This document shows, piece by piece, positions 14,650-29,805 of a stretch of DNA of 64,000 nucleotides. The stretch comes from Oceanococcus sp. HetDA_MAG_MS8 (GTDB lineage Bacteria; Pseudomonadota; Gammaproteobacteria; Nevskiales; Oceanococcaceae). The DNA lies in NCBI GenBank assembly GCA_019192445.1, contig JAHCMK010000005.1, positions 124,001-188,000 on the forward strand, given 5' to 3'. The position numbers and the translations under genes are program-made. The notes under the pieces are model-generated. The model was not told where the DNA came from. It worked only from the letters and a program-made list of their open reading frames with translations, and did not search any database. Position 1 is the first letter of the stretch. Each line of letters begins with the position of its first letter.

Positions 14650-15577
14650 GTGTTCCCTCCGGTGTTGATTATGAACGAGGTCTCTTACACTGAGTCCTCG
14701 CAGCTTATGACGGGATCGTCCGGCCTGGGCCGATGATCCGCATCAATCTAAAGTGAATTTTTTTCGGTGCGCGCGGTCCGGATCGGCAGGGAAACGCGGT
14801 AGCGCCAGACTTTCCCGATCGAGGACGTGCGCCGGAACGATGTGGAAATCTGACAACACGGCGAGTGTTACGGCGAGTGTTATGGCGTTGGGTAATAGTC
14901 TCGGGCTCACTTGCAGAAACCGGCATACAACAGCTCGTGCCACGGGTTCAAAGCATCGTTTCTGATGGGACCCACGATCACGCTCGGCGCACAGCTGCCG
15001 TGCGCTGCCCCTCCGCATTGACGGAGGCCTTATCAATGAATACGGCCTGTGCAACGCACAGGCCGAGGCGCACTGACCTCTGTTGACATCCTTCCTCATT
15101 GTTCTCCAGCCTTGACCCGCAAGTTAGCCGCGTCGTCATGGCTTTTTCTTTTCTACGACAACCGTGCGCGGCTGTCAATCGCTATTGGCATGTGTGGGTC
15201 GCCGCTGACAGCCGGGGGGGGCGGTTGAGTAGGGGCCCAGCTTCTGACTTCCAGAGGAAAGTAATTAAAGGATCGTACGATCGCAGGTCCGATTCAGCGC
15301 GTGACGGAGTACAGCGTTCGTGTACGCATCAAGAATGATGGCTTAGGCACAGGATTGAATTGCGTCAATGACGAAGAGTCAACCCGGCTTCCTTAATCGC
15401 CAACCAAGGAGCGCTGCGTCTGCGCAGCGAGGGCGTTGTGACCAAAGTCATCGTCTACACGATCGGAGTGCCCAAGGCCTGCGCTTAGCAGATTTTCGAG
15501 TTGGCGCATGGCGTCATCCTGGTGGCGCCCGAAGATGAGCTTCAGCCCCTTCGGACGTAGAGCGGCATCGAATGCTT
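14650..15577. other. accessory region without a recognisable intact gene
   Basis: About 930 bp with only short, unconvincing frames. Visible items: a 12-bp tandem repeat (CGGCGAGTGTTA) near 14860-14885; a strong hairpin CGGCCTGTGC / GCACAGGCCG with a 3-nt loop (15043-15065) lacking a T tract; the palindrome GATCGTACGATC near 15272; and a minus-strand frame (15393-15686) whose right part overlaps the duplicated PHP segment antisense. The mosaic look fits remnants of mobile DNA. Confidence 0.5.
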
Positions 15578-15894
15578 GGCCCATGGGCAGCCGCGTGAGC
15601 CTGCCGGCCGGTCGCCAAATGACCTTCTCAGTCAAGGTCTCGGGTGTGGCTTCGCCACGCATTGAGCTGGTGGGCGCAGGTGGCATTGTTGCTTCCGCCG
15701 TGGATGGCGCCGAGCTGACCTACGCCCAGGCACCTGACCAGCCTGAAGAGCAGTGGTTATTCGCCCGCGTGATTGACACCGCCGACCAGGATGGCGATGA
15801 GCGCCTGGACGAAGTTGTGGCGGTCACCACGCCGATCTGGTTTGCTCAGGGCGAGGACAAGGCTTCTTGCGACGGCAGTGCCTTCGCACCCTAA
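15578..15894 (+). pseudogene. truncated PHP-lipoprotein paralogue (317-bp repeat, copy 2)
   Basis: This encodes the C-terminal 105 residues of a paralogue of the gene at 9899, in frame to a TAA at 15892. The PHP catalytic part and signal peptide are missing; similarity begins abruptly at GGCCCATGGG. Most differences from copy 1 are synonymous, so it was probably part of an intact second gene until truncated. The stop codon lies in the CTAA at the left end of the following MITE. Confidence 0.8.
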
Positions 15895-16035
15895 GGAGAC
15901 GCTGGGTAAATCGCTGCGCTTGCAATCTGACCCGCCGGAGATGCGCGCACTCCCCACATATCGCCCATATGCTGCGGGCGCTGTGCTCCGGTGGCGGGCC
16001 ACTTTGCCTGGCTCGCGGATGTCTTCAGCGCCTCC
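15891..16035 (-). repeat. MITE-like repeat, copy E (inverted orientation)
   Basis: On the minus strand this reads GGAGGCGCTGAAGACA...GTGGCCCGCCACCGGAGCAC...CAGATTGCAAGCGCAGCGAT...CAGCGTCTCC then TTAG, matching copy A (24632-24793) along its length. The ends are imperfect inverted repeats. It sits between the convergent truncated PHP gene and the M20 amidohydrolase gene, and its left CTAA holds the stop codon of the former. Confidence 0.75.
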
Positions 16036-16080
16036 ATGACAGGGTGGTGGTAAAAGCCGTCTTGGTCTCCTAGCGCCCCG

Positions 16081-17475
16081 TTAATCCTCTTTAAGCAGCG
16101 CCAAGGCAGCGGCAGTCATGGCGCGTACGCCTGTGTCGATGGTCTTTGCGGCATCTGGGGCGAAGCTGGGTGAGTGCAGAGATGGCAGGCTTTGACCACC
16201 CTTCTGGGCTTGGGCGTAGCGCTGCGGTTCCACGGCGCCCACCCAGAAAATCAGGCTGGGGATCTTGTCGCTGGTCCGGCCGTATTGAGAGAAGTCCTCG
16301 CCGCCCATCACGGCGGTGATGGTTTGCACCTGGTCCTTGCCGATTTCGCGGCCGATGGCGGCCATGGCGCGGCGGGTGAGGTCGGGATCGTTGTAGGTGG
16401 CCGGGGTGTAGTCGGTTTCCACGGCGACGGTGGGGGCGGGTGCTCCGAAGGCCGCTGCCTGACCCTTGGCAATGCGGCGGATGCCATCGAGTAACAGCTT
16501 GCGGGTGTCATCCGCGTAGGAGCGCACCGTGAGCAGCAGTTGGGCCTGCTCCGGAATGATGTTGTGCTTGGCGCCGGCCGTTATCGAGCCCACCGTGACC
16601 ACCGCGGGAGTTTGCGGGTCCACATTGCGGGCCACCAGGCTTTGCAGACTGGTGACGATATGGGCCGCAATCAGCACCGGATCCACCGTGGTGTGCGGGT
16701 AGGCCCCATGCCCACCCACCCCACGCACGGTGATGTCTACGCTGTCCACATTGGCCAGCGCCCAGCCGGAGGAATAGGACACCGTCCCTGCCGGCGTGGC
16801 GGCGGATACATGCAGGGCCAGGTTGTAATCGGGCCGGGGAAAACGCGCGTACAGCCCATCTTCCAGCATGGCTTGTGCGCCCAGGCCGATCTCTTCGGCA
16901 GGTTGGGCGATCAATACCAAAGTGCCGGACCAATCCCTGCGTTTGGCCACCAATTCGCGGGCGGTACCCACCCAGCTGGTCATGTGCACATCATGCCCGC
17001 AGGCATGCATCACCGGGCTGTCGACCCCGGTCCAGGTCTGACCTTCGACGGTGCTGGCGTAACTCACGCCCGTGTTCTCGGGCACGGGTAGTCCGTCCAT
17101 GTCGGTGCGGATCAAGACGGTAGGTCCGGGGCCATTGCGCAACACGCCGACCACGCCATAGCCGCCCACACCCGGCCTTAGCTCACCGACGGCACTATGG
17201 GCTTTGTCGCGCACCCAGGCATCTCCCAACCCCGTGCTCACAGAGAATCCGAGTTCCTGGAGTTCATGGGCGAGGTAACGGCTGGTTTGAACTTCCTTGA
17301 AGGAGAGCTCCGGATGGGCATGGAGGCCGCGATACACTCGCATAAGGTCATCACCAGCCTGTGGCATGGCAGGGCCGGCCGCATTGCTGGTGGCCGCCGC
17401 CATGATGCCCAACAAAAGCATCAGCTTGGCGAAGGGCCTTGCTGGGGTGCGAAGAATAAGACCGAGCATGGGCAC
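16081..17475 (-). CDS. M20D-family metal-dependent amidohydrolase, exported
   Basis: A 464-residue protein of the M20D aminoacylase/carboxypeptidase group, which hydrolyses N-acyl amino acids or similar amides. Metal-ligand motifs are HACGHDVHMTSW, PAEEIGLGA, LALHVSA and the late MGGEDFSQY; GVGGHGAYPHTTVDP belongs to the dimerisation domain. The N-terminus has a hydrophobic stretch (AKLMLLLGIMAAATSNAAG) that predicts export to the periplasm. It is monocistronic; substrate unknown. Confidence 0.88.
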   Translation of the reverse strand: MPMLGLILRTPARPFAKLMLLLGIMAAATSNAAGPAMPQAGDDLMRVYRGLHAHPELSFKEVQTSRYLAHELQELGFSVSTGLGDAWVRDKAHSAVGELRPGVGGYGVVGVLRNGPGPTVLIRTDMDGLPVPENTGVSYASTVEGQTWTGVDSPVMHACGHDVHMTSWVGTARELVAKRRDWSGTLVLIAQPAEEIGLGAQAMLEDGLYARFPRPDYNLALHVSAATPAGTVSYSSGWALANVDSVDITVRGVGGHGAYPHTTVDPVLIAAHIVTSLQSLVARNVDPQTPAVVTVGSITAGAKHNIIPEQAQLLLTVRSYADDTRKLLLDGIRRIAKGQAAAFGAPAPTVAVETDYTPATYNDPDLTRRAMAAIGREIGKDQVQTITAVMGGEDFSQYGRTSDKIPSLIFWVGAVEPQRYAQAQKGGQSLPSLHSPSFAPDAAKTIDTGVRAMTAAALALLKED

Positions 17476-17717
17476 TCACCCAAATAGAACCCCCCTCAGC
17501 ATAGGTGGCTGGACGCGAGCTGCAAAGCCTCGAGGCTATACTCCTCCGCCAACACGGGCAGGGCTGAGCGCCACGTCTATGGAGCTATGATTGGGCCAGT
17601 GCTTGGCTTGAACCCCTTTCCCTGCTTTGTGCTGTGCTGGGCGATTGAAGCAAGCAGCTATAGCCGACGCCCTCACCGGTCTTTTCATCCTTCCCGTCTG
17701 TCCAAGTGATTGCTGAT

Positions 17718-18329
17718 ATGGACGCTACTCAGGTGCTCGCCTTTGCCTTGAGCTTCTTTGTGATTGCCTTGAGCCCTGGGCTCTGTATGACCTTGGCGCT
17801 GTCGCTAGGTATCCGAATCGGGCTGCGCCGCAGCTTGTGGATGATGCTGGGGGAGCTCATTGGGATTACCCTGGTCGGTGCTGCCGCTCTGGCCGGCGTT
17901 GGTACTTTGCTCATGCAGTCGCCCGCTGTGTTTTCCGTCGCAAAGCTGCTGGGCGCTGCCTTCCTGTTGTGGTCGGCATGGGGCGCTTGGAATTCCCCTG
18001 CGCCCATTTCCCTGGACAGCCCTGAGCTTGTCGTCGGGGTTTCCCAACTGTTTTCCCAGGGCTTTGTGACCGCCGCATTGAATCCCAAAGCCTGGGTATT
18101 TTTTGCGGCGTTGCTGCCGCCATTCATCAACCCACAGCAACCGCTGTTACCGCAGGCCTGCGTCCTGCTGGGCCTGATGGTGGTCATCGAGTTTTGCTGT
18201 CTGCTGATCTACGCCCAGGGCGGCCGGGTGCTGCGCGACTCCTTGGTTCAGCGTGGATTGGGACAATGGCTTAACCGTACCAGCGCAGTCTTGATGGCGG
18301 GCGTCGCCATGTGGTTGATACTGAGTTGA
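17718..18329 (+). CDS. LysE/RhtB-family amino-acid exporter
   Basis: A 203-residue inner-membrane exporter with about six hydrophobic segments and the family signature ALSPGLCMTLALSLGIRIGLRRS near the N-terminus, then NPKAWVFFAALLPPF. Members export amino acids such as homoserine, threonine or lysine. ATG at 17718 is preferred; an in-frame GTG at 17706 is possible. A second, distant member lies at 54058-54690. Confidence 0.88.
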   Translation: MDATQVLAFALSFFVIALSPGLCMTLALSLGIRIGLRRSLWMMLGELIGITLVGAAALAGVGTLLMQSPAVFSVAKLLGAAFLLWSAWGAWNSPAPISLDSPELVVGVSQLFSQGFVTAALNPKAWVFFAALLPPFINPQQPLLPQACVLLGLMVVIEFCCLLIYAQGGRVLRDSLVQRGLGQWLNRTSAVLMAGVAMWLILS

Positions 18330-18477
18330 GCGCTGCTGTGCGCGAGTGACCGAGGGAACTCTGTTGCTTGGATACCCGGTGGTTGCACCCTGATGCTCGG
18401 TTGTTGTCCAAACTGGATGGACGACTTCCAGCCTCGGTAATATCGAGCGTAGTAGCATGAGGACACCCAAGGCGGCG

Positions 18478-19128
18478 ATGAGCATCTACATACCTCCAAC
18501 GAACCAAAAACCTTCTGAGGAGTCGCAGGATCATGGCAACTCTTCCAAAGCACCAGCAGCGTCCACGGCTTCGGCCGCAACTGGGTCCGAGTTTCCTCCG
18601 CCTCGCGGGAGAGGGAAGCTGGTGCTGGGCTTATTGCTGGTGATTGTTTGTTTAGCGAGTGCAGGCGCTGGCTATGCTCTGTGGGACAGTGGCGTTTTCC
18701 GGTCCCAGCCAAGCTTAGAAGGGCATGAATTTTCAGAAATCTTCCGAACCATCTCCAATGCTGCTGAGCTGCGCGCCACGGTGACTCGCAAACTGGAGCT
18801 CGATCGGGCGTATCTACAAGAGGCCCAAGAGCGTAACGAGGAACAAATGGCCTTGACATTTCAGATGAGTGTTAAACAGTCCATCGAGGATTACCGCAAC
18901 GCTGGCAGCAATTGGGCCAGTGCCCTGGTGACATTGCATCCGTTTTACTTGCGCCAGCCAGAGCAAGTCCAGGCTTACTTTGCTACGGCCAAAGCTGAGC
19001 TCAGCGCCACGCAAAAAACTGCCAAAGAAGCCATCGATACCTCATTGCGTTTGCTGGAATCGGTGCCAGCAAACGGCTCCGCTCAGGATTACTTCAGTGC
19101 GCAGCTAATCGCTGAGCCGCAGATCTGA
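18478..19128 (+). CDS. single-span membrane protein, first gene of the VWA/MotAB-like operon
   Basis: Unrecognised 216-residue protein: a disordered S/A/P-rich cytoplasmic N-terminus (1-46), one transmembrane segment at about 47-69 (LVLGLLLVIVCLASAGAGYALW), then a helical periplasmic domain of about 140 residues. ATG at 18478 follows AAGGCGG; ATG 18457 is an alternative. It is 42 bp upstream of the first coiled-coil lipoprotein and reads with six further genes, so it is probably a structural part of the same envelope complex. Confidence 0.7.
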   Translation: MSIYIPPTNQKPSEESQDHGNSSKAPAASTASAATGSEFPPPRGRGKLVLGLLLVIVCLASAGAGYALWDSGVFRSQPSLEGHEFSEIFRTISNAAELRATVTRKLELDRAYLQEAQERNEEQMALTFQMSVKQSIEDYRNAGSNWASALVTLHPFYLRQPEQVQAYFATAKAELSATQKTAKEAIDTSLRLLESVPANGSAQDYFSAQLIAEPQI

Positions 19129-19170
19129 AACACTGAGACCCAACCAGAGCCGCAACTCAGGAGAAACGCC

Positions 19171-19911
19171 ATGCCCTATGCTCAGCTCCGATATACGCCA
19201 GCTCTGATCTTGGCGATTCTGTTTGCCTCCTGCGCTACCCAATCCACAAGTAGTACCGAAGCCTTATTTGCTGCCGCAGGGGCTCCCATTGCTACACCCA
19301 AAAGCTCGAACAGTGCCGGCATATTTGCTCTGGGCGGCGCCGCGGGATGCGCTATTGCGGCTGCGCTGGTGGGGGGCAGTAAATCTGCGGTCGGCACTTC
19401 AGCCGCAGTGTGCGGAGCCGCGGGTGCCGTGGTTGGTGGTCTCTCTGACCAGGGCCGGAATCAATACAACGCTCAAAAAGTGGAATACCAGCGGCGCTTC
19501 AACGCTGCGGAAGACGAGATTTACCAAGCCGACCTGCAGGCGCGGCAGGCTGAAGAGGCTATCGCACAAACTCGACGTGAGCTAGAGCAACTCAACCGGC
19601 GAACCCGCTCGGACCAGGCCTATGTGGCGCAAGCCGAAGAACTACGCAATACCCTGAATACACAGCGTTTGGCCTTGAGAGAGCAACGCCTGAATCTGCA
19701 AACCCGCAAACGCTTGGTCGATGAAGAGTTAGCGGCCGTGCAGGATTTGTTGAATGCCACCCCGAATGACCAGCAGTTACTGCAAGCCAAAGCGACCTTA
19801 GAAGCACAGCGCAACAAGTTGCTCGCCTCCATACAGCGTCTCAATGGCGTGGAGCAAAGCATTCAGGAAGAAGTTGCCAGCGCCGACCAAACCATCAACC
19901 GGAGGCGCTGA
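19171..19911 (+). CDS. lipoprotein with glycine zipper and coiled coil
   Basis: A 246-residue lipoprotein with lipobox FASC (Cys21). Residues about 48-92 are a Gly/Ala-rich, glycine-zipper-like hydrophobic region (GGAAGCAIAAALVGG, CGAAGAVVGGL) that could insert in a membrane. Residues about 95-240 form a long alpha-helical coiled coil rich in Q, E, R and L. AGGAG precedes the ATG at 19171. Its stop overlaps the next start (TGATG), so the two lipoproteins are made together. No known family beyond the glycine zipper. Confidence 0.72.
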   Translation: MPYAQLRYTPALILAILFASCATQSTSSTEALFAAAGAPIATPKSSNSAGIFALGGAAGCAIAAALVGGSKSAVGTSAAVCGAAGAVVGGLSDQGRNQYNAQKVEYQRRFNAAEDEIYQADLQARQAEEAIAQTRRELEQLNRRTRSDQAYVAQAEELRNTLNTQRLALREQRLNLQTRKRLVDEELAAVQDLLNATPNDQQLLQAKATLEAQRNKLLASIQRLNGVEQSIQEEVASADQTINRRR

Positions 19912-20447
19912 TGCGGGTTGCACTACTCAGCGTGGTTTTGCCAATCATTCTGCTCGGTTGCGCTACCGATTGTGGGAAGAGCACCGCAGGGTGGAGTGCG
20001 GCTTGCGGGGTCAAGCATGCCATGGGCTCCAATACGCAGACTCAAGCCTATCTTGACGAGCAGCGGCAGCGTGCTGAAGAGCGCGAAGCGCAGGTGGCGG
20101 CCGCGCAAACACGCAGCCAAGAGCTGCAAGTGCAGCTACGAAGGGCACAGACCGAACTTGCGGCGGTTGAGCGGTCCACGTCCCCGCTGCGCCAGAAAGC
20201 CGCAGCATTACGTCAGGAAATGGGGAAGAAGACAGCGGAAATCGAGTTGATTCAGCAAGACATTCAGTCTCTGCAAAGCCAAATACAAGCACTAGAGGCT
20301 AAGAAAGATAAGGCCGATGCCGACTGGGCGCGGCGCCAAGCCCTCCTGGATGAGTTGGCCAGGCAGCAACAAACTATCAACGAACTGGACCGCTACATTG
20401 AGCAGCAGCTCCTGGATCGCGCAGCGGAAATTCTTCGCAATGCTTAG
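19911..20447 (+). CDS. coiled-coil lipoprotein
   Basis: A 178-residue lipoprotein: signal MRVALLSVVLPIILLGC with the lipid cysteine at 17, a short region with two further cysteines, then coiled coil from about residue 45 to the end. It resembles the coiled-coil part of the preceding lipoprotein, and the two may pair. GGAGG at 19901 serves the ATG at 19911, which overlaps the previous stop. The 3' end overlaps the next gene by 8 nt. Confidence 0.72.
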   Translation: MRVALLSVVLPIILLGCATDCGKSTAGWSAACGVKHAMGSNTQTQAYLDEQRQRAEEREAQVAAAQTRSQELQVQLRRAQTELAAVERSTSPLRQKAAALRQEMGKKTAEIELIQQDIQSLQSQIQALEAKKDKADADWARRQALLDELARQQQTINELDRYIEQQLLDRAAEILRNA

Positions 20448-21594
20448 GCACTGGGCCTGCGCTGGGTTGCTTCTTGCGCCGCTGTGGGTTTTGGCCGCGC
20501 CTGTGGTCTTCGACGATGGAACCTACAAGGCTTTGCTGGAATCCGAGGCCTGCCAAGCCCCAGTGACCGTACGGGTCGAAGCGACATCACCAGACGATTT
20601 TGGCTATCTGAATCAGCGCTTCCAGGATGCCATTTCGCAAATTGCCACCAAGGCATGGCTACGCTGCCCCCAGGCCCGTGAGCTACACATACAAGCCATG
20701 ATGTCTCCGGCGACACAGCCGGTGATGGAGTTCCCGGTGCGGGTGGCTGAGCAGTGGAGGATTACTCCGCCACAAACGACGGACCCAACCCGGGTCGCTG
20801 AACCCGCTGCGACTCCGGAAGCTGCGCCGTCGATGGAGCCCACCACAGCCATTGAGCCAGGAGCGGCTCAGCGCCCCAGTCCGCCAGCGGATGTTAAGGA
20901 ATGGTCCGGCCGCGACCAGCCTGTGGAGGATGCCACTCTGGCGCGCGCGGTGGGCAAGCCTGAGCACATGGTTCAGGCGCTGTCGCCGGAAGAAAAACTA
21001 GCGCTCATGGAGCTTCTGGCCGCGCAAGCAGGTTCGCAGGCTGCTTGGCAGAAACTCGTCGCGCAGGCCCAGTCGGGGTCAAGGACCGCCAAGCTAGCTT
21101 TGGCGAATGTGCTGCTTAGAACCAAAGATCATGCGCCCATGAACACCCCCGAGTTTCTCCAACAGGTGGTGCAGATGCCCGAGGGCGTGGCTGAGCAAGG
21201 TTCCCTAGCCGCCGCACGCTACCTTTTGGAAGACCTCACTCAGGCGAGTGACGGGGCCCAGCTAGCTATGCTGCCAGAGATCGATGTAGACCAAAGCCAC
21301 GATGTACTGCAGGTGGCGTTTGCCGAACTGGAGCAGACTCAGACGCCTGACAATCCTTCCGGAGCCGACGAGTCCCCGTCTGCCGACGCGGCAACGGCTG
21401 CCGCTAAAACAGATTCTCAGACGCCAGATGCAGGCGCCATAGCTGCTGATAGTGCCAGTGCGCCGCAACCCCCAACGTTGCCCCAGAACCTGCCCCGGGG
21501 TGGTATTCCGCCGCTACCGCCAGGCCGACCCTATGATCCCGACGTAGGCCCGGATAATCCCAGCGCGGGCAGCGCCACGACGGTCATTGACTAG
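20440..21594 (+). CDS. periplasmic protein with proline-rich tail
   Basis: An unrecognised 384-residue exported protein. The signal peptide LRHWACAGLLLAPLWVLAA precedes a globular N-terminal domain with two cysteines (EACQAP, LRCPQA), a P/A/T/E-rich linker (about 95-150), a helical middle region (ALSPEEKLALMELLAAQAG, AAWQKLVAQAQSGSRTAKLA) that loosely recalls Sel1/TPR-type helices, and a long P/D/S-rich tail. ATG at 20440 overlaps the upstream stop. It lies 18 bp before the MotA-like gene. Confidence 0.7.
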   Translation: MLRHWACAGLLLAPLWVLAAPVVFDDGTYKALLESEACQAPVTVRVEATSPDDFGYLNQRFQDAISQIATKAWLRCPQARELHIQAMMSPATQPVMEFPVRVAEQWRITPPQTTDPTRVAEPAATPEAAPSMEPTTAIEPGAAQRPSPPADVKEWSGRDQPVEDATLARAVGKPEHMVQALSPEEKLALMELLAAQAGSQAAWQKLVAQAQSGSRTAKLALANVLLRTKDHAPMNTPEFLQQVVQMPEGVAEQGSLAAARYLLEDLTQASDGAQLAMLPEIDVDQSHDVLQVAFAELEQTQTPDNPSGADESPSADAATAAAKTDSQTPDAGAIAADSASAPQPPTLPQNLPRGGIPPLPPGRPYDPDVGPDNPSAGSATTVID

Positions 21595-21612
21595 CGCAAC
21601 CGAGACACCTGA

Positions 21613-22407
21613 ATGAATGCACTCAATAGCTGGCTACGCTGGTTGAGCGTTTTGCTCCTGGCCACCGTCGCCATTGGGACCAGCTTTGCCGTGAGCTGGA
21701 CGAATCCCGGTTTGTCCAATGTGGTGGAGTACACCATGTATGGGGTGATCCTGGGCCTGGCTGCCACTCTGATCGGCCGACAGTATGGGGTGATGCGGAT
21801 GCTGCAAAACGAAGCCGACCGGGCCGGCGATGTGGTTCGCGAACTTGCCCCCGCCATCGATCGTGACCGCGAAAGCACTGGTGATGGTAAGCCTTCGCAA
21901 CATACCCGTGAGGCCATTCAAAGGCTGGCTCACAAGATCCCCAACCTGCAAGAGTCCACACCACGTGGCAGTCGCCGGTACTACTTTGAGCGCCACATCG
22001 CTGCGCTGGAATCGATGAGCCAGAGTGGCCACGAACCCTCGCAAGCTGTGCTCATTGAAATTCTCCATGAGCGCTTATCAGCGGACAATAAGGCGGTGGA
22101 ACTCTTTGCCAGTGTGCTCATCACCTTGGGGCTCATAGGGACCATTTTGGGGCTGATGTTGATGATGAACAGTCTCACCGATGTGATGATGGCGAGTGGA
22201 GGCGGTGATGGTCTGTTACGCGCCCTGGCGGGGGACGAGGGGCCGCTGGCCGGGTTGGGAGTGGCCTTTATGACCACGCTGATGGGCTCTGTGCTGGGCG
22301 GTGTTGTTCTGCGAGTGCTAACGGGGATTGTCGAGCGTTCCATATCGGAGTTCGTGGCGCTGGTGGCCGAACTCAGCGAAGTTCACATTATTGGCCGCTT
22401 GAAGTAA
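21613..22407 (+). CDS. MotA/TolQ/ExbB-family proton-channel subunit
   Basis: A 264-residue four-span inner-membrane protein with stator topology: TM1 about 9-29, TM2 38-57, a cytoplasmic loop of about 100 residues, TM3 163-186 (ASVLITLGLIGTILGLMLMM) and TM4 212-236 (GLGVAFMTTLMGSVLGGVVL). The TLGLIGT and FMTTLMG segments match the channel-lining helices of TolQ/ExbB/MotA, including conserved threonines. Such proteins form pentamers around two MotB/ExbD-like helices and use ion flow to turn or pull a partner. The next two genes encode the expected partners, 4 and 3 bp apart. Confidence 0.85.
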   Translation: MNALNSWLRWLSVLLLATVAIGTSFAVSWTNPGLSNVVEYTMYGVILGLAATLIGRQYGVMRMLQNEADRAGDVVRELAPAIDRDRESTGDGKPSQHTREAIQRLAHKIPNLQESTPRGSRRYYFERHIAALESMSQSGHEPSQAVLIEILHERLSADNKAVELFASVLITLGLIGTILGLMLMMNSLTDVMMASGGGDGLLRALAGDEGPLAGLGVAFMTTLMGSVLGGVVLRVLTGIVERSISEFVALVAELSEVHIIGRLK

Positions 22408-22411
22408 GCCT

Positions 22412-23419
22412 ATGGCGCGCAAGCCGTCTTCGCCAGATACCTTCTTTGAGACGGTGTCTGATCTGATGTTCGGAACCATGGCCATCATGGTCATGTTGAT
22501 GTGCGTATTCATGGCCCTCAACCAGCCCCGAGACCCCGCTTCCCCTCCGGTGGAACCGCAGCCAGAAGCCGAGCTGCCAACCATTGCCCCCTTCGATATT
22601 CCGCAGATGGGCCGCCTACCCGAAGAACAGGCAGTGGCAGCTCTGGAAGAGCGTTTGCAAGAGCTCCAACAAAGCCTGGAACAGGCGCAAAGCCAAAAGG
22701 AACAGTTGGAGCAGGTCACGGCCCAGTATCAGGGCTTGGAGGGCAAAGAGATTCGCGATGTGGAGCTCGCAGTGATGATCGATGTTACCGGCAGCATGCA
22801 GCGTGAAATTGATCAATTGCGCGAGAGCATTGCGCTGCTGGCTAAGGCCATGCCGCGTATCGTCAAAACTTTTCGCATCAGTGTGGTCGCCTATCGTCGA
22901 GACCCGCAAAATATCGACGTGACCCGTGTGTTCCCCATGCAAACTATCCGCCAGCTCAACGCCGATGGTGGTAGCAGCCTGCGGGCCTTGGAAAACTTTG
23001 TAGCGCCCATTCGCGCCGAGGCGGGTAGTGCCCCTTTTGAGCGGGCCGCTGACCTAGCCCTACAACAGTTTTCGGCGGCGGAGGCTTTTGATGGCCAACA
23101 GGCCCTGTTTGTGATCGGCGATGTTGGGCCGTACGAAGACCAATATCGCGATCAGACCATCAGTGCTGCGAATCAAGCCAGTGCGACGGCGGTTCAAAAT
23201 CGCATCAGGCAGTGGACCAGGGAGGGGCTCCGCCGGCGCGCCATCTGGCTGTATACGGGCACCGACGAAATCAACGCAAGCTCAGGTGCCCAGCGCATCA
23301 AGTTCCAGCGCAGTCAGGATTTCTTCAAAGCCGCCGCCGCCAGCCTGCAGCAGGACGATGCCTATTCCGAGTCGCCTGGTGACATGCTGCCGCTGCTCGT
23401 CCTGGCAGCTCTGGGCTAG
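22412..23419 (+). CDS. MotB/ExbD-like membrane protein with periplasmic VWA domain (1)
   Basis: A 335-residue protein: a short cytoplasmic N-terminus, one transmembrane helix (VSDLMFGTMAIMVMLMCVFM) with Asp17 at the position of the proton-carrying Asp of MotB/ExbD/TolR, a P/E-rich linker, a short coiled coil (about 70-112) and a C-terminal von Willebrand A domain. The MIDAS motif is DVTGS (Asp124, Thr126, Ser128), with Thr at the usual first Ser; FVIGDVGP is the later VWA strand. MotB has a peptidoglycan-binding OmpA domain here instead. It is a paralogue of the next gene. Confidence 0.83.
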   Translation: MARKPSSPDTFFETVSDLMFGTMAIMVMLMCVFMALNQPRDPASPPVEPQPEAELPTIAPFDIPQMGRLPEEQAVAALEERLQELQQSLEQAQSQKEQLEQVTAQYQGLEGKEIRDVELAVMIDVTGSMQREIDQLRESIALLAKAMPRIVKTFRISVVAYRRDPQNIDVTRVFPMQTIRQLNADGGSSLRALENFVAPIRAEAGSAPFERAADLALQQFSAAEAFDGQQALFVIGDVGPYEDQYRDQTISAANQASATAVQNRIRQWTREGLRRRAIWLYTGTDEINASSGAQRIKFQRSQDFFKAAAASLQQDDAYSESPGDMLPLLVLAALG

Positions 23420-23422
23420 TTC

Positions 23423-24472
23423 ATGTTCTCGCGCCGAGGGAAAACAACCCATGGAGGATTTTATGAGTCCTTTAGCGATGTGATTTTCGCCACCATGGCC
23501 ATCTTCATTTTGTTGATGACCGTCTTTATGGTGGTCATCAAAACCGGTCAGGCTCTACCCAAGACACCCATTGTCAGTTCCACGCCGCAGGAGCCGACCT
23601 TAGCCAATCAACAAGCCGAGCTATTGCGCGAACGTTTTGAGCAAGAGCTGATCCTCCAGTCTCGGCAACAGGCCGCTGCCGCGCGTCGCGATGAGCTTCA
23701 GGCGCTGGTGTCGGGTCTGCAAGAGCAGCTCCAAGTCACCCAAGCGGAGATAGAAGCCGAGCAAGTCTCCGCGATTGATGCCCAGCGCAGTATCAATACC
23801 GTCACCATCAAAGAACGCATCGTCGAGATCGTGGTCGTGATCGATGCGTCCAACTCAATGCGCGACGAAATTCGCGAGCTGCGTCAGGTGGTCGGGCGTA
23901 TGGCCCAGCTCTTTCCCTATGTCACCAAGGAGTTTCGGATTGGCATCATCGCGCACGCGCACGCCCGGAATGCCTCGCGAATGGAGCGTTTCGCCTTGAG
24001 TACCATTCGCCGTACTAGTGATGATGGGGGTGTCAGCTACCGGCGTGTGGCAGACTGGCTCAGCGCCATTCGCCCGCGCGGCGGAGCCTCTCGCGTACTC
24101 GAAGCCTCGGAGCTGGCGGTCGGTATGTTTGGCCGCCCACAAGCCAATCATCACCAGATTGTGATGGTCATTGGTGATGTGGGGCCTACAGAGATGGACC
24201 TCGGCGGTGCCATGCATCCTTTTGCGACCCAGCGCATGTCCCGCATGCAGCAGGTTTTGACGCGCTTTGCCAGCAGCCACCAAGACCGCAAGCTCATCAT
24301 GCATTTCTCCGGCTTGGATAACCTGCGCGGCTACGATGCTCTGAAATACCGCCAGGCCCGGCGCTTATTCAAAGACATCGCCAACATCTCCGGACAATCG
24401 GGCACCTACAGCGAAAACCCAACCACCATGTTCGTCGACTTCTTAGTGGCCTCGCTGGAGCAAAAATCGTAG
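23423..24472 (+). CDS. MotB/ExbD-like membrane protein with periplasmic VWA domain (2)
   Basis: A 349-residue paralogue of the preceding protein with the same plan: transmembrane helix FSDVIFATMAIFILLMTVFM with Asp19 at the proton-site position, a coiled coil (about 60-125), then a VWA domain with canonical MIDAS DASNS (Asp141, Ser143, Ser145) and MVIGDVGP. Both copies share the TIR...DGG.S.R stretch. Adjacent paralogues suggest the stator carries a heterodimer. It is the last gene of the operon; a 7-bp hairpin (24584-24600) follows, without a T tract. Confidence 0.83.
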   Translation: MFSRRGKTTHGGFYESFSDVIFATMAIFILLMTVFMVVIKTGQALPKTPIVSSTPQEPTLANQQAELLRERFEQELILQSRQQAAAARRDELQALVSGLQEQLQVTQAEIEAEQVSAIDAQRSINTVTIKERIVEIVVVIDASNSMRDEIRELRQVVGRMAQLFPYVTKEFRIGIIAHAHARNASRMERFALSTIRRTSDDGGVSYRRVADWLSAIRPRGGASRVLEASELAVGMFGRPQANHHQIVMVIGDVGPTEMDLGGAMHPFATQRMSRMQQVLTRFASSHQDRKLIMHFSGLDNLRGYDALKYRQARRLFKDIANISGQSGTYSENPTTMFVDFLVASLEQKS

Positions 24473-24631
24473 CCAGCGCGGTACACATGTACGCGTGGGC
24501 TTTGCTCCAACGGGGCGTTCAGGAGATCCGGCCATCCGGGTTTGAAGCGGATAGCGACTTATCGCCATGCCGTTATCGGGAGCTCCATGCTCAGCATGGA
24601 AATGATGTTGGGAATGATCATCGTGGGCGGG

Positions 24632-24793
24632 CTAGGGAGGCGCTTAAGAAAGCCGCGAGCGAAGCAAGGTGGCCCGCCGCCGAAGCGCAGAAGCTGCAGC
24701 ATATAGGCAATATGTGAGGCTTCTTTTTTTTACTGGCGAGCACCGCCGGTGGGTCAGATTGCGAGCACAGCGATTTATTCAGCGCCTCCCTAG
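24632..24793 (+). repeat. MITE-like repeat, copy A with CTAG target duplication
   Basis: A 154-bp element (24636-24789) has terminal inverted repeats GGAGGCGCTTAAGAAA and, read inward from the right, GGAGGCGCTGAATAAA. It is flanked on both sides by CTAG (24632-24635 and 24790-24793). It encodes nothing convincing and contains a T8 run. The GGA termini and the YTAR-type 4-bp duplication are like IS5-family targets, so a non-autonomous IS5-type MITE is plausible. Length and termini are clear; family assignment is inferred. Confidence 0.82.
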
Positions 24794-24850
24794 AGTAGGC
24801 GAAGACCTTCTCGGATCTTTGTTCTCATGCGTCATTGTCGACTCGCAAGG

Positions 24851-25453
24851 ATGATTCATGCCCCGCTGCGTATGGGGATTTTGTTGGTTGTATGTGGGTA
24901 CTTGCTGAGTTGCGGGCGTTCCACGCCGCCGCCTGATTTAAGCGCTAGTCGCACCATCCTTGCCTTTGGGGATAGCCTCACCTTCGGTTATGGGGCTAAG
25001 CAATCCCAGAGCTACCCCAGTGTCCTCGCAGAGCTCACCGGGAAGCGCGTCATTAATGCGGGTGTGAACGGGGAAACCACCTCTGCGGGTGTGCGGCGGA
25101 TCTCAGAGTTACTGGAAGAACACCGCCCCGATGTGGTGCTGCTCCTGGAGGGCGGCAATGACCTACTCCGTCGTCAGAGCGTAGCAAGTATAAAAACCAA
25201 CTTGCTAAGGATGATTGAGTTGAGTCAAAGCCACGGGGCGCAGGTTGTTCTGATTGCGGTTCCAAAGCCTGCGATTTTCGGTTTGTCGGACCACGAGGTC
25301 TATGCCGAGGTGGCGACTCAGGCCCAGGTATTTTTGCTGGCTGATGTGGTCAGTGAGGTTCTATCCGACGCTGACTTACGCTCCGATAAAATTCACCCGA
25401 ACGCAGCCGGTTATCGCCAGATGGCCGAAGCCCTCGCCGTGTTCTTCCTCTAG
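24851..25453 (+). CDS. GDSL/SGNH-family esterase lipoprotein (TesA-like arylesterase)
   Basis: A 200-residue SGNH hydrolase. Block I is LAFGDSLTFGYG with the nucleophilic serine, block II GVNGETT, block III GGNDLLRR, and block V SDKIHPNAAGY gives the catalytic Asp and His. This matches the TesA/arylesterase group, which hydrolyses acyl-CoA or short esters. A lipobox LLSC predicts lipid anchoring, unlike periplasmic E. coli TesA. ATG at 24851 follows AAGG; the frame is open from 24827. The TAG stop is the CTAG at the left end of MITE copy B. Confidence 0.87.
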   Translation: MIHAPLRMGILLVVCGYLLSCGRSTPPPDLSASRTILAFGDSLTFGYGAKQSQSYPSVLAELTGKRVINAGVNGETTSAGVRRISELLEEHRPDVVLLLEGGNDLLRRQSVASIKTNLLRMIELSQSHGAQVVLIAVPKPAIFGLSDHEVYAEVATQAQVFLLADVVSEVLSDADLRSDKIHPNAAGYRQMAEALAVFFL

Positions 25454-25671
25454 GGATGCGCTCTGAGAAAACAGTAATTGAGGGCCTCAGCGAGCGAGGC
25501 AAGGTCGTCCGCCGCTGGAGCGACAACCGTTTTGACCGCATCAAAACGGCGCGTAGCCCCGCCGGGGCGAGCCGTATGGATGCTTCGAACAAGCCGCCGC
25601 AAGTTGGGCCTATGTGAGGTGCCTGCCGTCGCCTGGCGAGTGCCGCCGCCAGGTCAGATGAGGGGCGCAGC
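25450..25671 (+). repeat. MITE-like repeat, copy B, between convergent genes
   Basis: The left end CTAG-GGATGCGCTCTGAGAAA matches copy A; the inner blocks GCGAGCGAGGCAAGG and GTGAGG...GGCGAGTGCCGCCGCCAGGTCAGATG also match. The right end is degenerate at the ybiT stop. It carries extra material with a perfect 9-bp hairpin CCGTTTTGA/TCAAAACGG (25527-25549) and GCCCC/GGGGC (about 25555), which may terminate both convergent transcripts. The left CTAG contains the esterase stop codon. Confidence 0.65.
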
Positions 25672-25672
25672 C

Positions 25673-27265
25673 TCAGGCTTGGCTGCGTAAATAGTCCTCG
25701 TAGCCCCCACCGAAATCTTCGTAGCGGTCACCTTTGAGTTCAATGATGCGAGTGGCCAAGCTGGAGACAAACTCGCGGTCATGGCTGACGAAGATCAAGG
25801 TGCCTTCGAAAAGCTCCAAAGCCATGTTCAGCGACTCGATGGACTCCATGTCCATGTGGTTGGTGGGCTCGTCCATAACGATGATGTTGGGCCGCTGCAG
25901 CATGATTTTGCCGAAGAGCATGCGGCCCTGCTCGCCTCCTGATAGGACGCGCAAAGGCTTGGTGATGGCATCGGCCGAGAAGAGCAGGCGGCCTAGGATG
26001 CCGCGAATGACTTGGTCATCGTCGCCGGGTTGGCGCCATTGGCTCATCCACTCGAATAGGGTCATATCGGAGTCGAAATCTGCCGAATGATCCTGGGCGT
26101 AATAGCCGATGTTGGCATTCTCAGACCAATTCACACTGCCGCTGTCTGGCGCGTATTCGGCTTCGCCCATGAGCATGCGCAGCAGGGTGGATTTGCCGAT
26201 TCCGTTTTCCCCAATTACAGCCACCCGTTCGCCCACTTCAACAGTGAACGAGAGTTTGTTGAAAATGGCGTGCTCGCCAAAGGCCTTGCTGGTTTCTTCC
26301 ACGACTAGGGCATTGCGGAAGAGCTTCTTTTCCATCTCGAAGCGGATGTAGGGGTTGGATCGGCTGGAGACTTTAACCTCGGCCAGTTCAATTTTGTCGA
26401 TCTGCCGGGCGCGGGAGGTAGCCTGCTTGGCCTTGGAGGCGTTGGCAGAGAAACGAGCCACAAAGGCTTGCAGCTCTTTGATTTGCGCCTTCTTCTTGGC
26501 ATTGTCCGAAATGAGCTGAGCACGGGCCTGGGTCGAGGCCAACATGTAGTCATCGTAGTTGCCGGGGTATACCCGCAGTTCGCCGAAATCCAGGTCGGCC
26601 ATGTGCGTGCAGACGCTGTTGAGAAAGTGGCGATCGTGGGAGATGATGATCATGGTGGAGTCGCGCTGATTGAGCGTATCTTCCAACCATTGGATGGTGT
26701 GGATGTCGAGGTTGTTGGTGGGCTCGTCCAGCAACAGGATGTCTGGCTCGGAGAACAGGGCCTGGGCGAGTAGTACGCGCAGCTTCCAGCCTGGAGCAAT
26801 CTCACTCATCAAACCGTAGTGCTGCGCTTCGGGAATTCCGAGGCCTAGTAGCAAGTCGCCAGCACGTGCCTCGGCGCTATAACCGTCAAACTCCATGAAC
26901 TGGGCCTCCAGCTCACCGGCGCGCATGCCATCCTCTTCGCTCATCTCAGGCTGAGCGTAGATGCGATCACGCTCTTCTTTGACCGCCCAGAGTTCGGTAT
27001 GGCCCATGATGACGGTGTCGATGACCGTGTACTTTTCGAAGCCGAACTGATCCTGACGCAGCTTGCCGATGCGCTCGCCAGGATCCAGACTGACGTTACC
27101 CGAGGTTTGCTGTAAGTCGCCGCCCAGAATCTTCATTAAGGTGGACTTGCCGCAGCCGTTGGCGCCGATCAGGCCATAGCGGTTGCCTTCGCCAAACTTC
27201 TGCGAAATATTCTCGAATAGTGGCTTGGCGCCGAATTGCTGGGTGATGTTGTTGGCAGCGAGCAC
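25673..27265 (-). CDS. ybiT: ABC-F ATPase YbiT
   Basis: A soluble 530-residue protein with two ABC domains and no membrane part: Walker [10 protein letters not shown] and GENGIGKST, Walker [12 protein letters not shown] and [11 protein letters not shown], joined by a charged linker ([19 protein letters not shown]). Length and sequence follow E. coli YbiT closely from end to end. ABC-F proteins act on the ribosome; the exact role of YbiT is not settled. It is monocistronic and convergent with the esterase gene. Confidence 0.95.
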
Positions 27266-27509
27266 GGTGATCGTCCTTGGAGATTTGGCGCCTGCGCCCT
27301 GTGTTCGACAACAATCGCAACAGACGGAGGCGGCGAGGGCACCTTGGCAAACCTCGCAATAGGCTAGTTGGGGAAGGCGCGGGCGCTGGATGGGCCGCGC
27401 AATGGATGTATTGTCCCATGCCCGGAGCTACTGCGCAGGGCTGCTAAAGTGGCAGCCATGTACTGATATGGTGAAGATCCAGGTTGATGTTGAAAGCAGA
27501 GGCAGGGCT

Positions 27510-27938
27510 ATGCAGTTCGATCTAACCCCCCTGAGCGCCGAGCGCAAACAGGAACTGGCCGCCAAGCTCAATGACGAGGAGCGGCGGGTGCTTTTGAACC
27601 AGGGCACGGAGCATCCCTTTTGCGGTGGCCTTCTGGATAACAAGCAGGCTGGTGTGTACGCCTGCAAGCTCTGCGCGCTGCCCATTTTCCGCTCCGATTC
27701 CAAGTTTGATTCGGGTAGTGGCTGGCCGAGCTTTCATAGCCCTTACGCCCCCAATCACATTCGTGAGATTCGCGACACCAGTCACGGCATGATTCGTACG
27801 GAAATTCGTTGCGCGCGCTGTGATGGTCACCTAGGGCATGTCTTTCCGGATGGCCCACCTCCCACGGGCATGCGCTACTGCCTAAATTCTGTGTCTATGG
27901 ATTTTTTTGCCGAAGGCGAGGCCTTACCTGAGCTATGA
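27510..27938 (+). CDS. msrB: peptide-methionine (R)-S-oxide reductase MsrB
   Basis: Repairs methionine-R-sulfoxide. The 142 residues have two zinc CxxC pairs (Cys52/55 and Cys101/104), GWPSF and the catalytic cysteine Cys124 in RYCLNSVSM. At the usual resolving-cysteine site the sequence is DSGSGWPSF (Ser70), while Cys38 in HPFCGG is available as an alternative, as reported for some Xanthomonas-type enzymes. ATG at 27510 follows GGCAGGG; an in-frame ATG at 27468 would add 14 residues not expected in the family. Confidence 0.94.
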
Positions 27939-27995
27939 ACACACGCGGCGCTGGCCGCCTGCGGTTCGTCTCGTCGGTGCTCTGCCTGTGGTTGT

Positions 27996-28868
27996 TTAGT
28001 CGTACAGGGGGCGGGAGAGCTGCTCTACTCGATAGCATCGTTGCTGCTCACACACTCGGTAGGTGGCGGGCATAAGTCGCTTTAGCTTGTTCTCGCTCTG
28101 GAGTTGCTCCAGTGTGTCTAAGGTGGCTTCGACCTCGGCGAAATCGAGCTGTGCCTTGTGCGGTGCTAAGTCGTAGCGCCACCACTGCAATACCAAAAAC
28201 CGCTCCACTAGCGAAGGAGCGAAGCGGTCGCGAATGACCCTTGCAGGAGATCCCACCGCAATGGTGTAAGCCGGTATGTCTTGGGTGACGACACTCCTTG
28301 CGCCAATGACCGCACCATCACCAATACTGACGCCGCGCTTGATGAAACACCCTGCGCCAATGTAGGCCTCGTGCCCAATCTTGGTGAGTGGTGCACTCTC
28401 AGCCCAGGCTGGCTCATCGCTGTCTGCAGGTGCGAGGCGTGCAAAATCTGCGAACTCATACATGGCCGGGATGTGGCTGGGCCGAGTAAAGGCGAAGGGG
28501 TGGTTGCTAAACCAATCCATGGGGTGTTCAGGAGGGCCAATGATGCTGGACTCGCCAATTTGGGCGTACCGCCCCAGGCGTGTGCGATACACACTGGTAG
28601 TGCCTGCTGCATTGAAAAAGGTGAAAGCGCCAATGGAGCAGGACTTTACACGGTGCCCGAAGAGCCAGGCCGGACGTTCAAAGACCGTTTCTGCTTTGAG
28701 TAAGCTCCCAGGGGTTAAGGCCAAGCCATACCGGGCTAAATCGCCTGCATCCAGTGCTGCCGTCGCTGGAGGCTGTTCAGCAGCCGCAGCGGTTGTACTT
28801 GGCCGCGGGAGTCGAGCATTGTGCAGAGGCGCTTGAGGTGTTGTGGAATAAGGCGCAAGGTGCTGCAT
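27996..28868 (-). CDS. hexapeptide-repeat acyltransferase (XAT/CatB-like)
   Basis: A 290-residue putative O-acetyltransferase with left-handed beta-helix repeats: an incomplete set from [40 protein letters not shown], a loop holding HPFAFTRP, then [53 protein letters not shown], typical of xenobiotic/polysaccharide acetyltransferases. A 50-residue low-complexity N-terminal extension and a helical C-terminus are additional. AGGA precedes ATG 28868. The substrate (sugar or antibiotic) is unknown. Confidence 0.8.
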
Positions 28869-29139
28869 GGGTATGGTCCTAGCTCGGCGAGCGGGTATAT
28901 GACGTCGGAGGGATTCTCTGGTGGGGTGCAGAGGTCCTAATCACCACCGGGGCGAAGTTGTGAGTGTGCCGCTAGCCACAGTAGGCAAAAGCCGGTGGCT
29001 TAAGTGCAGCGGTGTAGTCGACCCCGATTGGCCATGTCAGTTTCTGCTCACAGCCTGTCGTAGACCTTCGCTCGTTGAATGTGCCGAGTTCGCTCGCGCC
29101 GTGGGTCGGGATCAATGCGACTGAGCCTTGCATTCTGCG
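28869..29139. other. intergenic, nothing recognised
   Basis: About 270 bp between the acyltransferase start and the DUF427 gene end, with no convincing gene, terminator or repeat. A 67-codon plus-strand frame (28921-29124) has no ribosome-binding site or recognisable product. Confidence 0.4.
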
Positions 29140-29649
29140 TTACCAATGTCCGGTACCAGGCTCACCTTTAAAAGGGCCGACCAGCTCAGGGGTAATCCAC
29201 CCGCCGTAAAAGCGGCCAGCTTGAGGGCGTACTCGGACCTGATCCACAAAGCAGGCAACAGCGGCTGGGTAAAAGGCAACATGGTCTTTGATTGCGGCAT
29301 ACGGTTGCGCTGGTGAGGCATAGCTCCAAGCGATTGGCGTACCGGGTTGCGTTTTCAGGGCCCAATACTGCGCATCACCTTTCCACTCGCAGCGTGACGC
29401 TCCCGGCGCTGGGACTAGTTGATCCCAGTCCACACAGTCCGCAGGAAGATAAAACGTGGGTGGACTCGCCGTTTCACACAGTCTGAAACTCGTACTGGTC
29501 GCGGCTAACTGACGCTCGTCAGATCTAACCACCACGCGGCGGTGGTCGGCCATCAGTTGCGGTGGGCGAGGGTAATCCCAGACCGATTCCTGACCAGGTT
29601 TGGGTGCGATGGCAAAAGAGGGGCGTGTCTGACCCTTGTATTTCCACAT
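29140..29649 (-). CDS. DUF427 family protein
   Basis: A 169-residue soluble protein with the DUF427 pattern: VWDYPRPPQLMADHRRVVV, LCETASPPTFYLPADCVDW, CEWKGDAQYWAL and IAWSYASPAQPYAAIKDHVAFYP. The family fold is known but its reaction is not. ATG at 29649 has GAGGA 8-12 nt upstream; the frame is open to 29709. It is divergent from the HMG-CoA reductase gene with 156 bp between them. Confidence 0.85.
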   Translation of the reverse strand: MWKYKGQTRPSFAIAPKPGQESVWDYPRPPQLMADHRRVVVRSDERQLAATSTSFRLCETASPPTFYLPADCVDWDQLVPAPGASRCEWKGDAQYWALKTQPGTPIAWSYASPAQPYAAIKDHVAFYPAAVACFVDQVRVRPQAGRFYGGWITPELVGPFKGEPGTGHW

Positions 29650-29805
29650 GGCGATGTCCTCGACCCGGCGCCCGCTTGAGATGCCGGCCTTCAGGTAGAC
29701 AGAGTGCAATCCCTTTGTTGGGATGCGGTCCGAACAGAGTACCCTTGCTCAGATAGCGCCGCAGCGTCGTGAACTTTGCAGCAGCCTGTCACTGAGAGGA
29801 GCCCC

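What the first reader, a model, noticed from the sequence alone, without database searches (positions are those of the whole stretch)
18478..24472. Candidate undescribed ion-driven envelope machine: MotA/ExbB-like channel with two MotB-like VWA proteins
Seen: seven plus-strand genes with gaps or overlaps of -8 to +42 bp encode a single-span protein, two coiled-coil lipoproteins, a periplasmic protein, a four-span MotA/TolQ/ExbB-like subunit and two proteins whose single helix carries the stator aspartate (Asp17, Asp19) but whose periplasmic part is a VWA domain. Known: MotAB, ExbBD, TolQR and ZorAB all couple ion flow to movement through this helix pair; MotB and ZorB carry OmpA-type peptidoglycan domains. 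Inference: this is a stator that moves or loads VWA domains in the periplasm, linked to the outer membrane by the lipoproteins. It could serve envelope maintenance, transport or defence. The module has no match among systems I can name.
Basis: partly seen in the sequence, partly recalled or inferred. Interest (0 to 1): 0.88.

Follow-up and report, generated by a model that had tools for sequence, protein, structure and literature searches.

The report
Proton motor with VWA grip heads
A seven-gene bacterial cassette encodes a membrane motor of the flagellar-stator family whose moving parts end in protein-gripping VWA domains and are co-inherited with two lipoproteins; in some sister cassettes it sits beside secreted toxin-like genes, one with its antidote, which suggests that it may move proteins through the cell envelope during bacterial competition.

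Summary
Observation confirmed. Window 18478-24472 holds seven tightly packed + strand genes: a single-span protein, two coiled-coil lipoproteins, a periplasmic protein, a MotA/TolQ/ExbB-type channel and two MotB-like proteins with the stator aspartate (Asp17, Asp19) and VWA heads (gene 6 checked by AlphaFold2 and Foldseek). The set recurs in order in Oceanococcus; five genes (channel, VWA shaft, single span, both lipoproteins) recur together in other gammaproteobacteria, Planctomycetota and Verrucomicrobiota. It is rare and patchy.

The core idea is already in print: PMC12204202 (2025) predicts TolQ-like pentamers with paired, Asp-bearing trans-pore-helix vWA proteins as force transducers. What I read there does not mention the lipoprotein and single-span partners, and its main text never uses the word toxin. 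New lead: in 5 of 5 sister loci whose contig continues past gene F, a secreted basic protein (H) follows. One H carries a barnase-type RNase and is followed by barstar; two H proteins share their N-terminal but not their C-terminal part. I propose an ion-driven envelope machine that handles exported proteins, in some lineages polymorphic toxins. No toxin-like gene was seen next to the window's block. New variant of a known kind.

The parts
18478..19128 (+). gene 1 (C): single-span protein with periplasmic helical part
   Evidence: relatives in the far lineage by hhalign 98.2% (88); leave-one-out recovers 9 of 11 C rows
19171..19911 (+). gene 2 (D): lipoprotein-like, glycine-zipper-like stretch and coiled coil
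   Evidence: Rick_17kDa_Anti 15.3 bits, below cut-off; 99.4%; 9 of 9
19911..20447 (+). gene 3 (E): coiled-coil lipoprotein-like
   Evidence: 98.5%; 8 of 9
20440..21594 (+). gene 4: exported periplasmic protein of unknown fold; relatives in L015, L016 and L032 only
21613..22407 (+). gene 5 (A): MotA/TolQ/ExbB-type channel subunit, likely four spans
22412..23419 (+). gene 6 (B1): shaft helix with Asp17, coiled coil, VWA head
23423..24472 (+). gene 7 (B2): shaft helix with Asp19, coiled coil, VWA head

Best explanation
The cassette encodes an ion-driven inner-membrane motor of the 5:2 kind: a gene 5 pentamer around a dimer of the helices of genes 6 and 7, whose shafts carry metal-dependent VWA heads in the periplasm. 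Ion flow past Asp17/Asp19 would turn or pull the heads, which grip and release a client presented by the single-span protein and the two lipoproteins that reach towards the outer membrane. The machine most likely moves or releases exported proteins in the envelope; in some sister loci the linked cargo looks like a polymorphic toxin, so the best guess for its role is interbacterial antagonism or cargo export. Shown: gene content, conserved block, Asp and Thr, VWA fold of gene 6, toxin-like neighbours in sister loci. Inferred: stoichiometry, ion flow, motion, client and toxin role. The cargo of the window's own copy is unknown.
For: Channel family match; invariant Asp in 14 of 14 B rows, Thr in 11 of 11 A rows and intact MIDAS in 13 of 13 VWA rows; VWA model and PDB matches; A-B-C-D-E kept together across three phyla; peptidoglycan-binding domain fused to D in L034 and in the cut copy of L033; F followed by H in 5 of 5 loci whose contig continues; barnase-type H plus barstar in Marinobacter; L034 and L036 H share the N-terminal part (signal removed: score 105, best of 1000 shuffles 75) but not the C-terminal part (score 30, reached by 708 of 1000 shuffles); a small ORF overlaps the L034 H gene; patchy distribution and mobile or defence-rich surroundings of L034, L035, L038.
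Against: No toxin-like gene was seen beside the block in the window, Oceanococcus or L032 (ORF lists read by eye: 1, 24, 31). Only one H has a firm toxin domain; H of L035 and L038 match no family, L038 has DUF2947 of unknown role next to it, L039 H is a repeat protein. The other nine H pairs lie below the best shuffle. In Marinobacter the F-H-barstar genes are on the opposite strand to A-E. Gene 4 is not detectably related to F. Islands gather unrelated genes, so neighbours may be passengers. No outer-membrane pore was recognised.
Confidence: 0.38

Rival explanations
1. A Tol-Pal-like envelope machine: the motor pulls or recycles the two lipoproteins to keep outer membrane and cell wall together or to place them at particular sites; the toxin-like neighbours of sister loci are unrelated passengers.
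For: Two conserved lipoproteins beside the motor; peptidoglycan-binding domain on D in L033/L034; no toxin-like gene seen at the window block.
Against: Patchy and rare and in part on mobile or defence-rich DNA, unlike housekeeping Tol-Pal; no TolR, TolA, TolB or OmpA-type match in the seven proteins.
Confidence: 0.27
2. A Zorya-like anti-phage sensor: envelope damage is sensed by the VWA heads and lipoproteins, ion flow is triggered, and the cell is protected or killed.
For: Weak best PADLOC matches to ZorA1 (gene 5, E 0.00036) and ZorB1 (gene 7, E 0.0018); L035 copy adjoins a type IIG restriction enzyme, helicase and AAA protein.
Against: No ZorA-type cytoplasmic tail (gene 5 has 264 aa and its last span starts near 215), no ZorB-type peptidoglycan-binding domain, no nuclease or helicase in the block; both lipoproteins and the single-span partner have no counterpart in the Zorya passages read.
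Confidence: 0.17
3. An adhesion or gliding machine: the motor moves VWA heads that bind surface or wall ligands to attach or move the cell.
For: MIDAS intact; PDB neighbours include integrin and LapA-adhesin VWA domains; L040 keeps the shaft but has a fibrinogen-like head; PMC12204202 suggests a gliding role for its other, TolA-like vWA family.
Against: I saw no recurring gliding or adhesin gene beside the module in the ORF lists (31, judged by eye); by topology the heads are periplasmic.
Confidence: 0.1

Closest known systems
TPH-vWA force transducers with TolQ-like pentamers (PMC12204202, Mol Biol Evol 2025; section 8 read)
   Same: TolQ-like gene beside paired vWA proteins whose single helix carries the stator Asp; no tolR/exbD match in the block; Proteobacteria and Verrucomicrobia
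   Different: Lipoprotein and single-span partners and toxin-like neighbours are not mentioned in what I read; Planctomycetota are included here; whether this lineage is within the Idiomarina-based family of that paper could not be tested
Zorya ZorAB (PMC11890865, passages read)
   Same: MotA-type channel, Asp-bearing shaft; weak best PADLOC matches
   Different: No long ZorA tail, no ZorB peptidoglycan-binding domain, no effector in the block
MotAB, TolQR and ExbBD motors
   Same: Channel family PF01618, shaft Asp, pore threonines
   Different: Periplasmic head is VWA, not an OmpA-type or TolR/ExbD-type domain
Polymorphic toxin systems (PMC3482391, passages read)
   Same: In sister loci: exported proteins with shared N-terminal part and different C-terminal parts (L034, L036); barnase/barstar pair in Marinobacter
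   Different: MotA, TolQ and vWA occur 0 times in the main text held (300,000 of 357,715 characters); no such toxin was seen beside the window block

Membership tests
MotA/TolQ/ExbB 5:2 motor superfamily | Channel subunit of PF01618 | tested here: met
   30.5 bits, cut-off 22.9
MotA/TolQ/ExbB 5:2 motor superfamily | Adjacent single-span partner with conserved Asp; pore threonines | tested here: met
   Asp in 14 of 14 B rows, Thr in 11 of 11 A rows; position in a pore not modelled
MotA/TolQ/ExbB 5:2 motor superfamily | 5:2 stoichiometry and ion flow | not testable with these tools
   Only single chains could be modelled
TPH-vWA class of PMC12204202 | vWA domain behind an Asp-bearing trans-pore helix, in a pair, beside a TolQ-like gene and without tolR/exbD | tested here: met
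   no ExbD/TolR match among the seven proteins at E<=1 (10)
TPH-vWA class of PMC12204202 | Sequence relationship to the Idiomarina family used there | not tested
Zorya | Long cytoplasmic ZorA tail | tested here: not met
   Gene 5 is 264 aa, last span from about 215 (109)
Zorya | Peptidoglycan-binding (Pal/OmpA-like) domain on ZorB | tested here: not met
   VWA instead
Zorya | ZorC/D or ZorE effector in the operon | tested here: not met
   No such match above coiled-coil noise in the seven proteins
Tol-Pal | TolR, TolA, TolB and Pal (OmpA domain) | tested here: not met
   None among Pfam matches of the seven proteins at E<=1 (10)
Flagellar MotAB | OmpA-type domain on MotB | tested here: not met
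   VWA instead
Polymorphic toxin system (sister loci) | Shared N-terminal part, variable toxin domain, adjacent immunity gene | tested here: inconclusive
   Clear toxin and immunity domains for L036; L034 shares its N-terminal part and has an overlapping small ORF (80) but only a sub-threshold Ntox10 hint; L035, L038, L039 unresolved
Polymorphic toxin system (window) | Toxin and immunity genes beside the block | tested here: not met
   None seen in the ORF list of 15000-30000 (by eye; not every flanking ORF was scanned)

The most novel reading that the evidence does not exclude
A mobile, proton-motor-driven toxin delivery machine: exported polymorphic toxins are handed by the TPR-like F protein to VWA heads of a 5:2 motor, which push or pull them across the outer membrane along a lipoprotein path; the window and Oceanococcus hold a two-headed branch that has lost its cargo gene or keeps it elsewhere.
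Probability: 0.25. Interest if true: 0.92.

Novelty: new variant of a known kind. Interest (0 to 1): 0.62.

Why it matters
Stator-type motors are known to drive swimming, gliding, nutrient import, envelope upkeep and phage defence. The VWA-headed class is in print as a structural prediction of unknown function. This module gives a member of that class a fixed set of partners (single-span protein and two lipoproteins) and a first functional lead (toxin-like neighbours), so its role becomes testable, for example in Marinobacter. The swap of the VWA head for a fibrinogen-like head on the same shaft (L040) suggests that the motor may be a base for exchangeable periplasmic heads.

Tried and rejected
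Rejected: membership in Zorya, MotAB or Tol-Pal (features not met, see the membership test). Rejected: that all seven genes are the widely conserved unit; genes 1, 2, 3, 5 and one VWA gene are, while gene 4 is not detectably related to the F proteins of the other loci. Weak B-profile hits in sampled genomes are partial matches; those opened were a VWA protein beside a trypsin-like gene (L018), two-gene A+B pairs (L158, L159), kinase/phosphatase-linked relatives (L155, L156), VWA proteins of other gene sets (L160, L161) and TM-VWA proteins without an A match (L157, L168). The rest were not opened.

Led nowhere: viral contigs (34 pattern matches, no relative); plasmids with gene 7, Marinobacter B, F, and H proteins or parts of them (no match; one weak match over 27% of F); PDB search with the channel profile (77, none) and with H of L034 and L035 (46, 47, nothing convincing); AlphaFold2 of the L034 H C-terminal part (92, pLDDT 35). 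A clean empty site in the other genome of the genus was not shown: around its best esterase match only the esterase aligned with window ORFs. Base composition of the block does not stand out from its right flank.

Rows dropped or treated apart: L031 is the same contig as L015 (59,762 bases) and L016 is close to L015, so only L015 entered the family sets; L154 is on a contig of the same length as L033 (14,927 bases) and was counted with it; L040 was left out of the B tree; L033 and L040 are not in the D and E sets (L033 ends in D; none seen in L040). In leave-one-out window rows were sought only among the seven window proteins, the others among all ORFs of their locus. C failed in L035 and L038, and E in L038 (another ORF scored instead); these are placed by position only. 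The trees have weak inner support, and the grouping of all paired B genes is at 59/69.
Full report
OBSERVATION. The seven ORFs lie as described, with spacings of +42, -1, -8, +18, +4 and +3 bases. No sigma-70-type promoter-like site was found in 18200-24900, and terminator-like sites were about as many as in shuffles (8 found, mean 6.2, sd 2.5), so one transcript is plausible but unproven. Gene 5 matches MotA_ExbB (PF01618) at 30.5 bits (cut-off 22.9); gene 7 matches VWA_2 at 29.6 (cut-off 27); gene 6 matches VWA models only below cut-off; genes 1 and 4 match nothing at E<=1. In PADLOC the best matches are ZorA1 for gene 5 (E 0.00036) and ZorB1 for gene 7 (E 0.0018), both weak.

SHAFT PROTEINS. 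An AlphaFold2 model of gene 6 on 14 relatives has mean pLDDT 80.6: helix 9-36, helix 71-107, then a domain 114-334 with most values over 90. Foldseek against the PDB gives 273 chains at E<=0.001, led by a NorD VWA domain (1.1e-6), with integrin, anthrax-receptor, Ku and LapA-adhesin VWA domains among the first 50. A profile search of PDB sequences finds integrin and von Willebrand domains and, weakly, Motility protein B (6ysl, E 0.041, profile positions 26-88). Asp17 of gene 6 aligns with Asp19 of gene 7 and is invariant in 14 of 14 B rows; the metal site is complete in 13 of 13 rows with a VWA head; T171, T177, T221 and T222 of the channel are invariant in 11 of 11 A rows.

CONSERVATION OF THE BLOCK. 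Gene 7 was found in 3 of 100 relatives: the window's genome and two of the same family, not in the other genome of its genus (same result with a profile in 4 genomes). In one of them, Oceanococcus sp. (L015, the same contig as JASBUL010000058.1, L031), all seven genes recur in the same order. L016 has relatives of genes 1-5 and two B genes. A pattern-based scan of one genome for each of 84,980 species gave 10 loci out of 213 pattern matches: Oceanococcus, an uncultured gammaproteobacterium (L032), two Lamellibrachia endosymbionts (L033, L034), Phycisphaerales (L035), Marinobacter maritimus (L036), another Planctomycetota bacterium (L037), Rubritalea (L038), Puniceicoccaceae (L039) and a Pseudomonadales bacterium (L040). 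With the window and L016 that makes 12 genomes. In L032-L039 the order is A-B-(B)-C-D-E, where A = gene 5, B = genes 6/7, C = gene 1, D = gene 2 and E = gene 3. All five are placed in 10 of 12; L033 ends inside D, and L040 has A, a C-like gene and a B with another head, but no D or E seen. Two B genes occur in 4 of 12 (window, L015, L016, L032).

Leave-one-out profiles recovered A in 11 of 11, B in 14 of 14, C in 9 of 11, D in 9 of 9 and E in 8 of 9 rows (for the window only its seven proteins were searched). Profile-profile comparison of the window lineage (window, L015, L032) with the far lineage gives probabilities of 98.2 (C), 99.4 (D) and 98.5 (E), against 0, 12 and 59 for three mismatched pairs; gene 4 and F show no match. 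The 59 is a warning that coiled coil inflates such values for D and E; gene position and lipoprotein-like starts support them independently.

DISTRIBUTION. Matches with a B profile: 13 of 369 class genomes, 35 of 398 Pseudomonadota, 5 of 337 Verrucomicrobiota, 11 of 163 of the Marinobacter family, 79 of 274 Planctomycetota, 71 of 195 of the endosymbiont's order, and 3 of 147 of the L035 class at E<=1e-15. Full-length matches in these were the seed genomes themselves and G1633, whose contig has the length of the L033 contig. Two genomes (G1817, G1427) have matches over positions 27-311 and 44-306; no A match lies in the 20 kb around them. Only part of the first-look candidates was scored in several calls, so misses are possible. 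The L034 module lies between two 300-base repeats at 98% identity, pieces of an adjoining gene that I read as CheW-like (recalled). The L035 module follows a type IIG restriction enzyme, a helicase and an AAA protein. The L038 module lies between a TraG/D-type coupling protein and a phage integrase.

TOXIN LINK IN SISTER LOCI. A gene F (exported or single-span start, weak Sel1/TPR matches) follows E in L034, L035, L037, L038 and L039; in L036 it lies downstream on the other strand. F proteins are related (L034-L036 51% identity, E 4e-115; 103). In L037 the contig ends in F; in the other 5 of 5 it is followed by H, a protein with a signal-like start and a Pro/Lys/Arg-rich stretch (in L038 with one gene between). 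Marinobacter H ends in a barnase-type ribonuclease (Pfam E 1.7e-12; barnase and relatives in the PDB at E 0.0018-0.0099) and overlaps by 4 bases a barstar gene (E 3.4e-24; 31, 37). H of L034 and H of L036 are related: whole-length score 138 against a best of 70 in 300 shuffles. The relation is in the N-terminal part: with the signal removed the score is 105 (best of 1000 shuffles 75), while the C-terminal parts score 30, reached by 708 of 1000 shuffles. The other nine H pairs lie below the best shuffle; the closest to significance, L036-L038, was reached by 3 of 300 and L035-L038 by 7 of 300. The L034 H gene overlaps by 4 bases a 103-aa ORF (80); its C-terminal part has a sub-threshold Ntox10 match (E 0.077) that the whole protein did not show. 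L038 H is followed by a DUF2947 gene (E 1e-18), role unknown. L035 H matches no family, and an 88-aa ORF 104 bases downstream was not assessed. L039 H is a repeat protein. So a toxin is clear in one locus, fairly supported in a second and open in three. No H-like gene was seen beside the window, Oceanococcus or L032 blocks (ORF lists read by eye; 1, 24, 31).

WHAT IS IN PRINT. The first library search led to PMC12204202 (section 8 read in full; further passages). It describes vWA proteins with a trans-pore helix, predominantly in heterologous pairs, beside a tolQ-like gene without tolR/exbD, with the conserved Asp, mainly in Proteobacteria and Verrucomicrobia, modelled inside the pentamer. 'Toxin' occurs 0 times in its main text. 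Six further searches (titles and abstract starts of the listed papers seen, for 64 only 12 of 162) and one without result (104) showed no paper that links such a motor to toxins. Of PMC12505986 I saw the abstract and passages; of PMC12905483, PMC3482391 and PMC11890865 passages. The library holds open-licence papers only, so this does not prove absence.

MECHANISM. From family knowledge, ion flow past the shaft Asp in a MotA/ExbB-type pore drives relative rotation. Here the load is a pair of metal-dependent VWA domains on coiled coils; VWA domains bind partners through a metal ion (established knowledge). The simplest machine is a motor that grips, moves and releases a protein client. The two lipoproteins have alanine after the cysteine, which would send them to the outer membrane by the recalled Lol rule; with the single-span protein and F or gene 4 they are the likely path outward. 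The H genes of sister loci suggest exported toxins as cargo; that step is inference.

VERDICT. Observation confirmed; interpretation partly supported; motor core already predicted in print; accessory set and toxin-like neighbours not found in print here. New variant of a known kind, interest 0.62; the bolder reading (toxin delivery by a stator-type motor) gets probability 0.25.

Noticed in passing
L040:9968-10837: The B-type shaft (57% identity to gene 7 over the helix) carries a Fibrinogen_C-like head (PF00147, E 6.7e-9) in place of VWA, in an A-C-B arrangement.
   Followed up: partly
L155 and L156: VWA shafts of another subfamily lie among protein kinases, with a PP2C phosphatase and a trypsin/FHA protein in L155, and a MotA_ExbB fragment at the contig edge in L156: possibly a phospho-signalling motor.
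   Followed up: no
L158:7594-9406 and L159:8386-10218: Two-gene pairs of a MotA-like channel and a VWA-type shaft without the lipoprotein partners.
   Followed up: partly
L034:8458-8757 and 16691-16990: 300-base direct repeat at 98% identity around the whole module, as if inserted with duplication of part of the neighbouring gene.
   Followed up: partly
L039:1976-2818 and L040:9074-9955: The C proteins of these loci begin with a CxxC...CxxC stretch like a zinc ribbon (sequence; weak Pfam matches below cut-off for L040; none for L039), which the other C proteins lack.
   Followed up: no
L039:5341-6177: The H protein is built of repeats of the kind F-N-[KR]-x-[AS] (sequence), unlike the other H proteins.
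   Followed up: no
G000 (whole genome): 13 MotA_ExbB matches, 12 over cut-off, including the window's own.
   Followed up: no
window 29776-30984: Hydroxymethylglutaryl-CoA reductase gene (PF00368, E 4.5e-121), uncommon in gammaproteobacteria as far as I recall.
   Followed up: no
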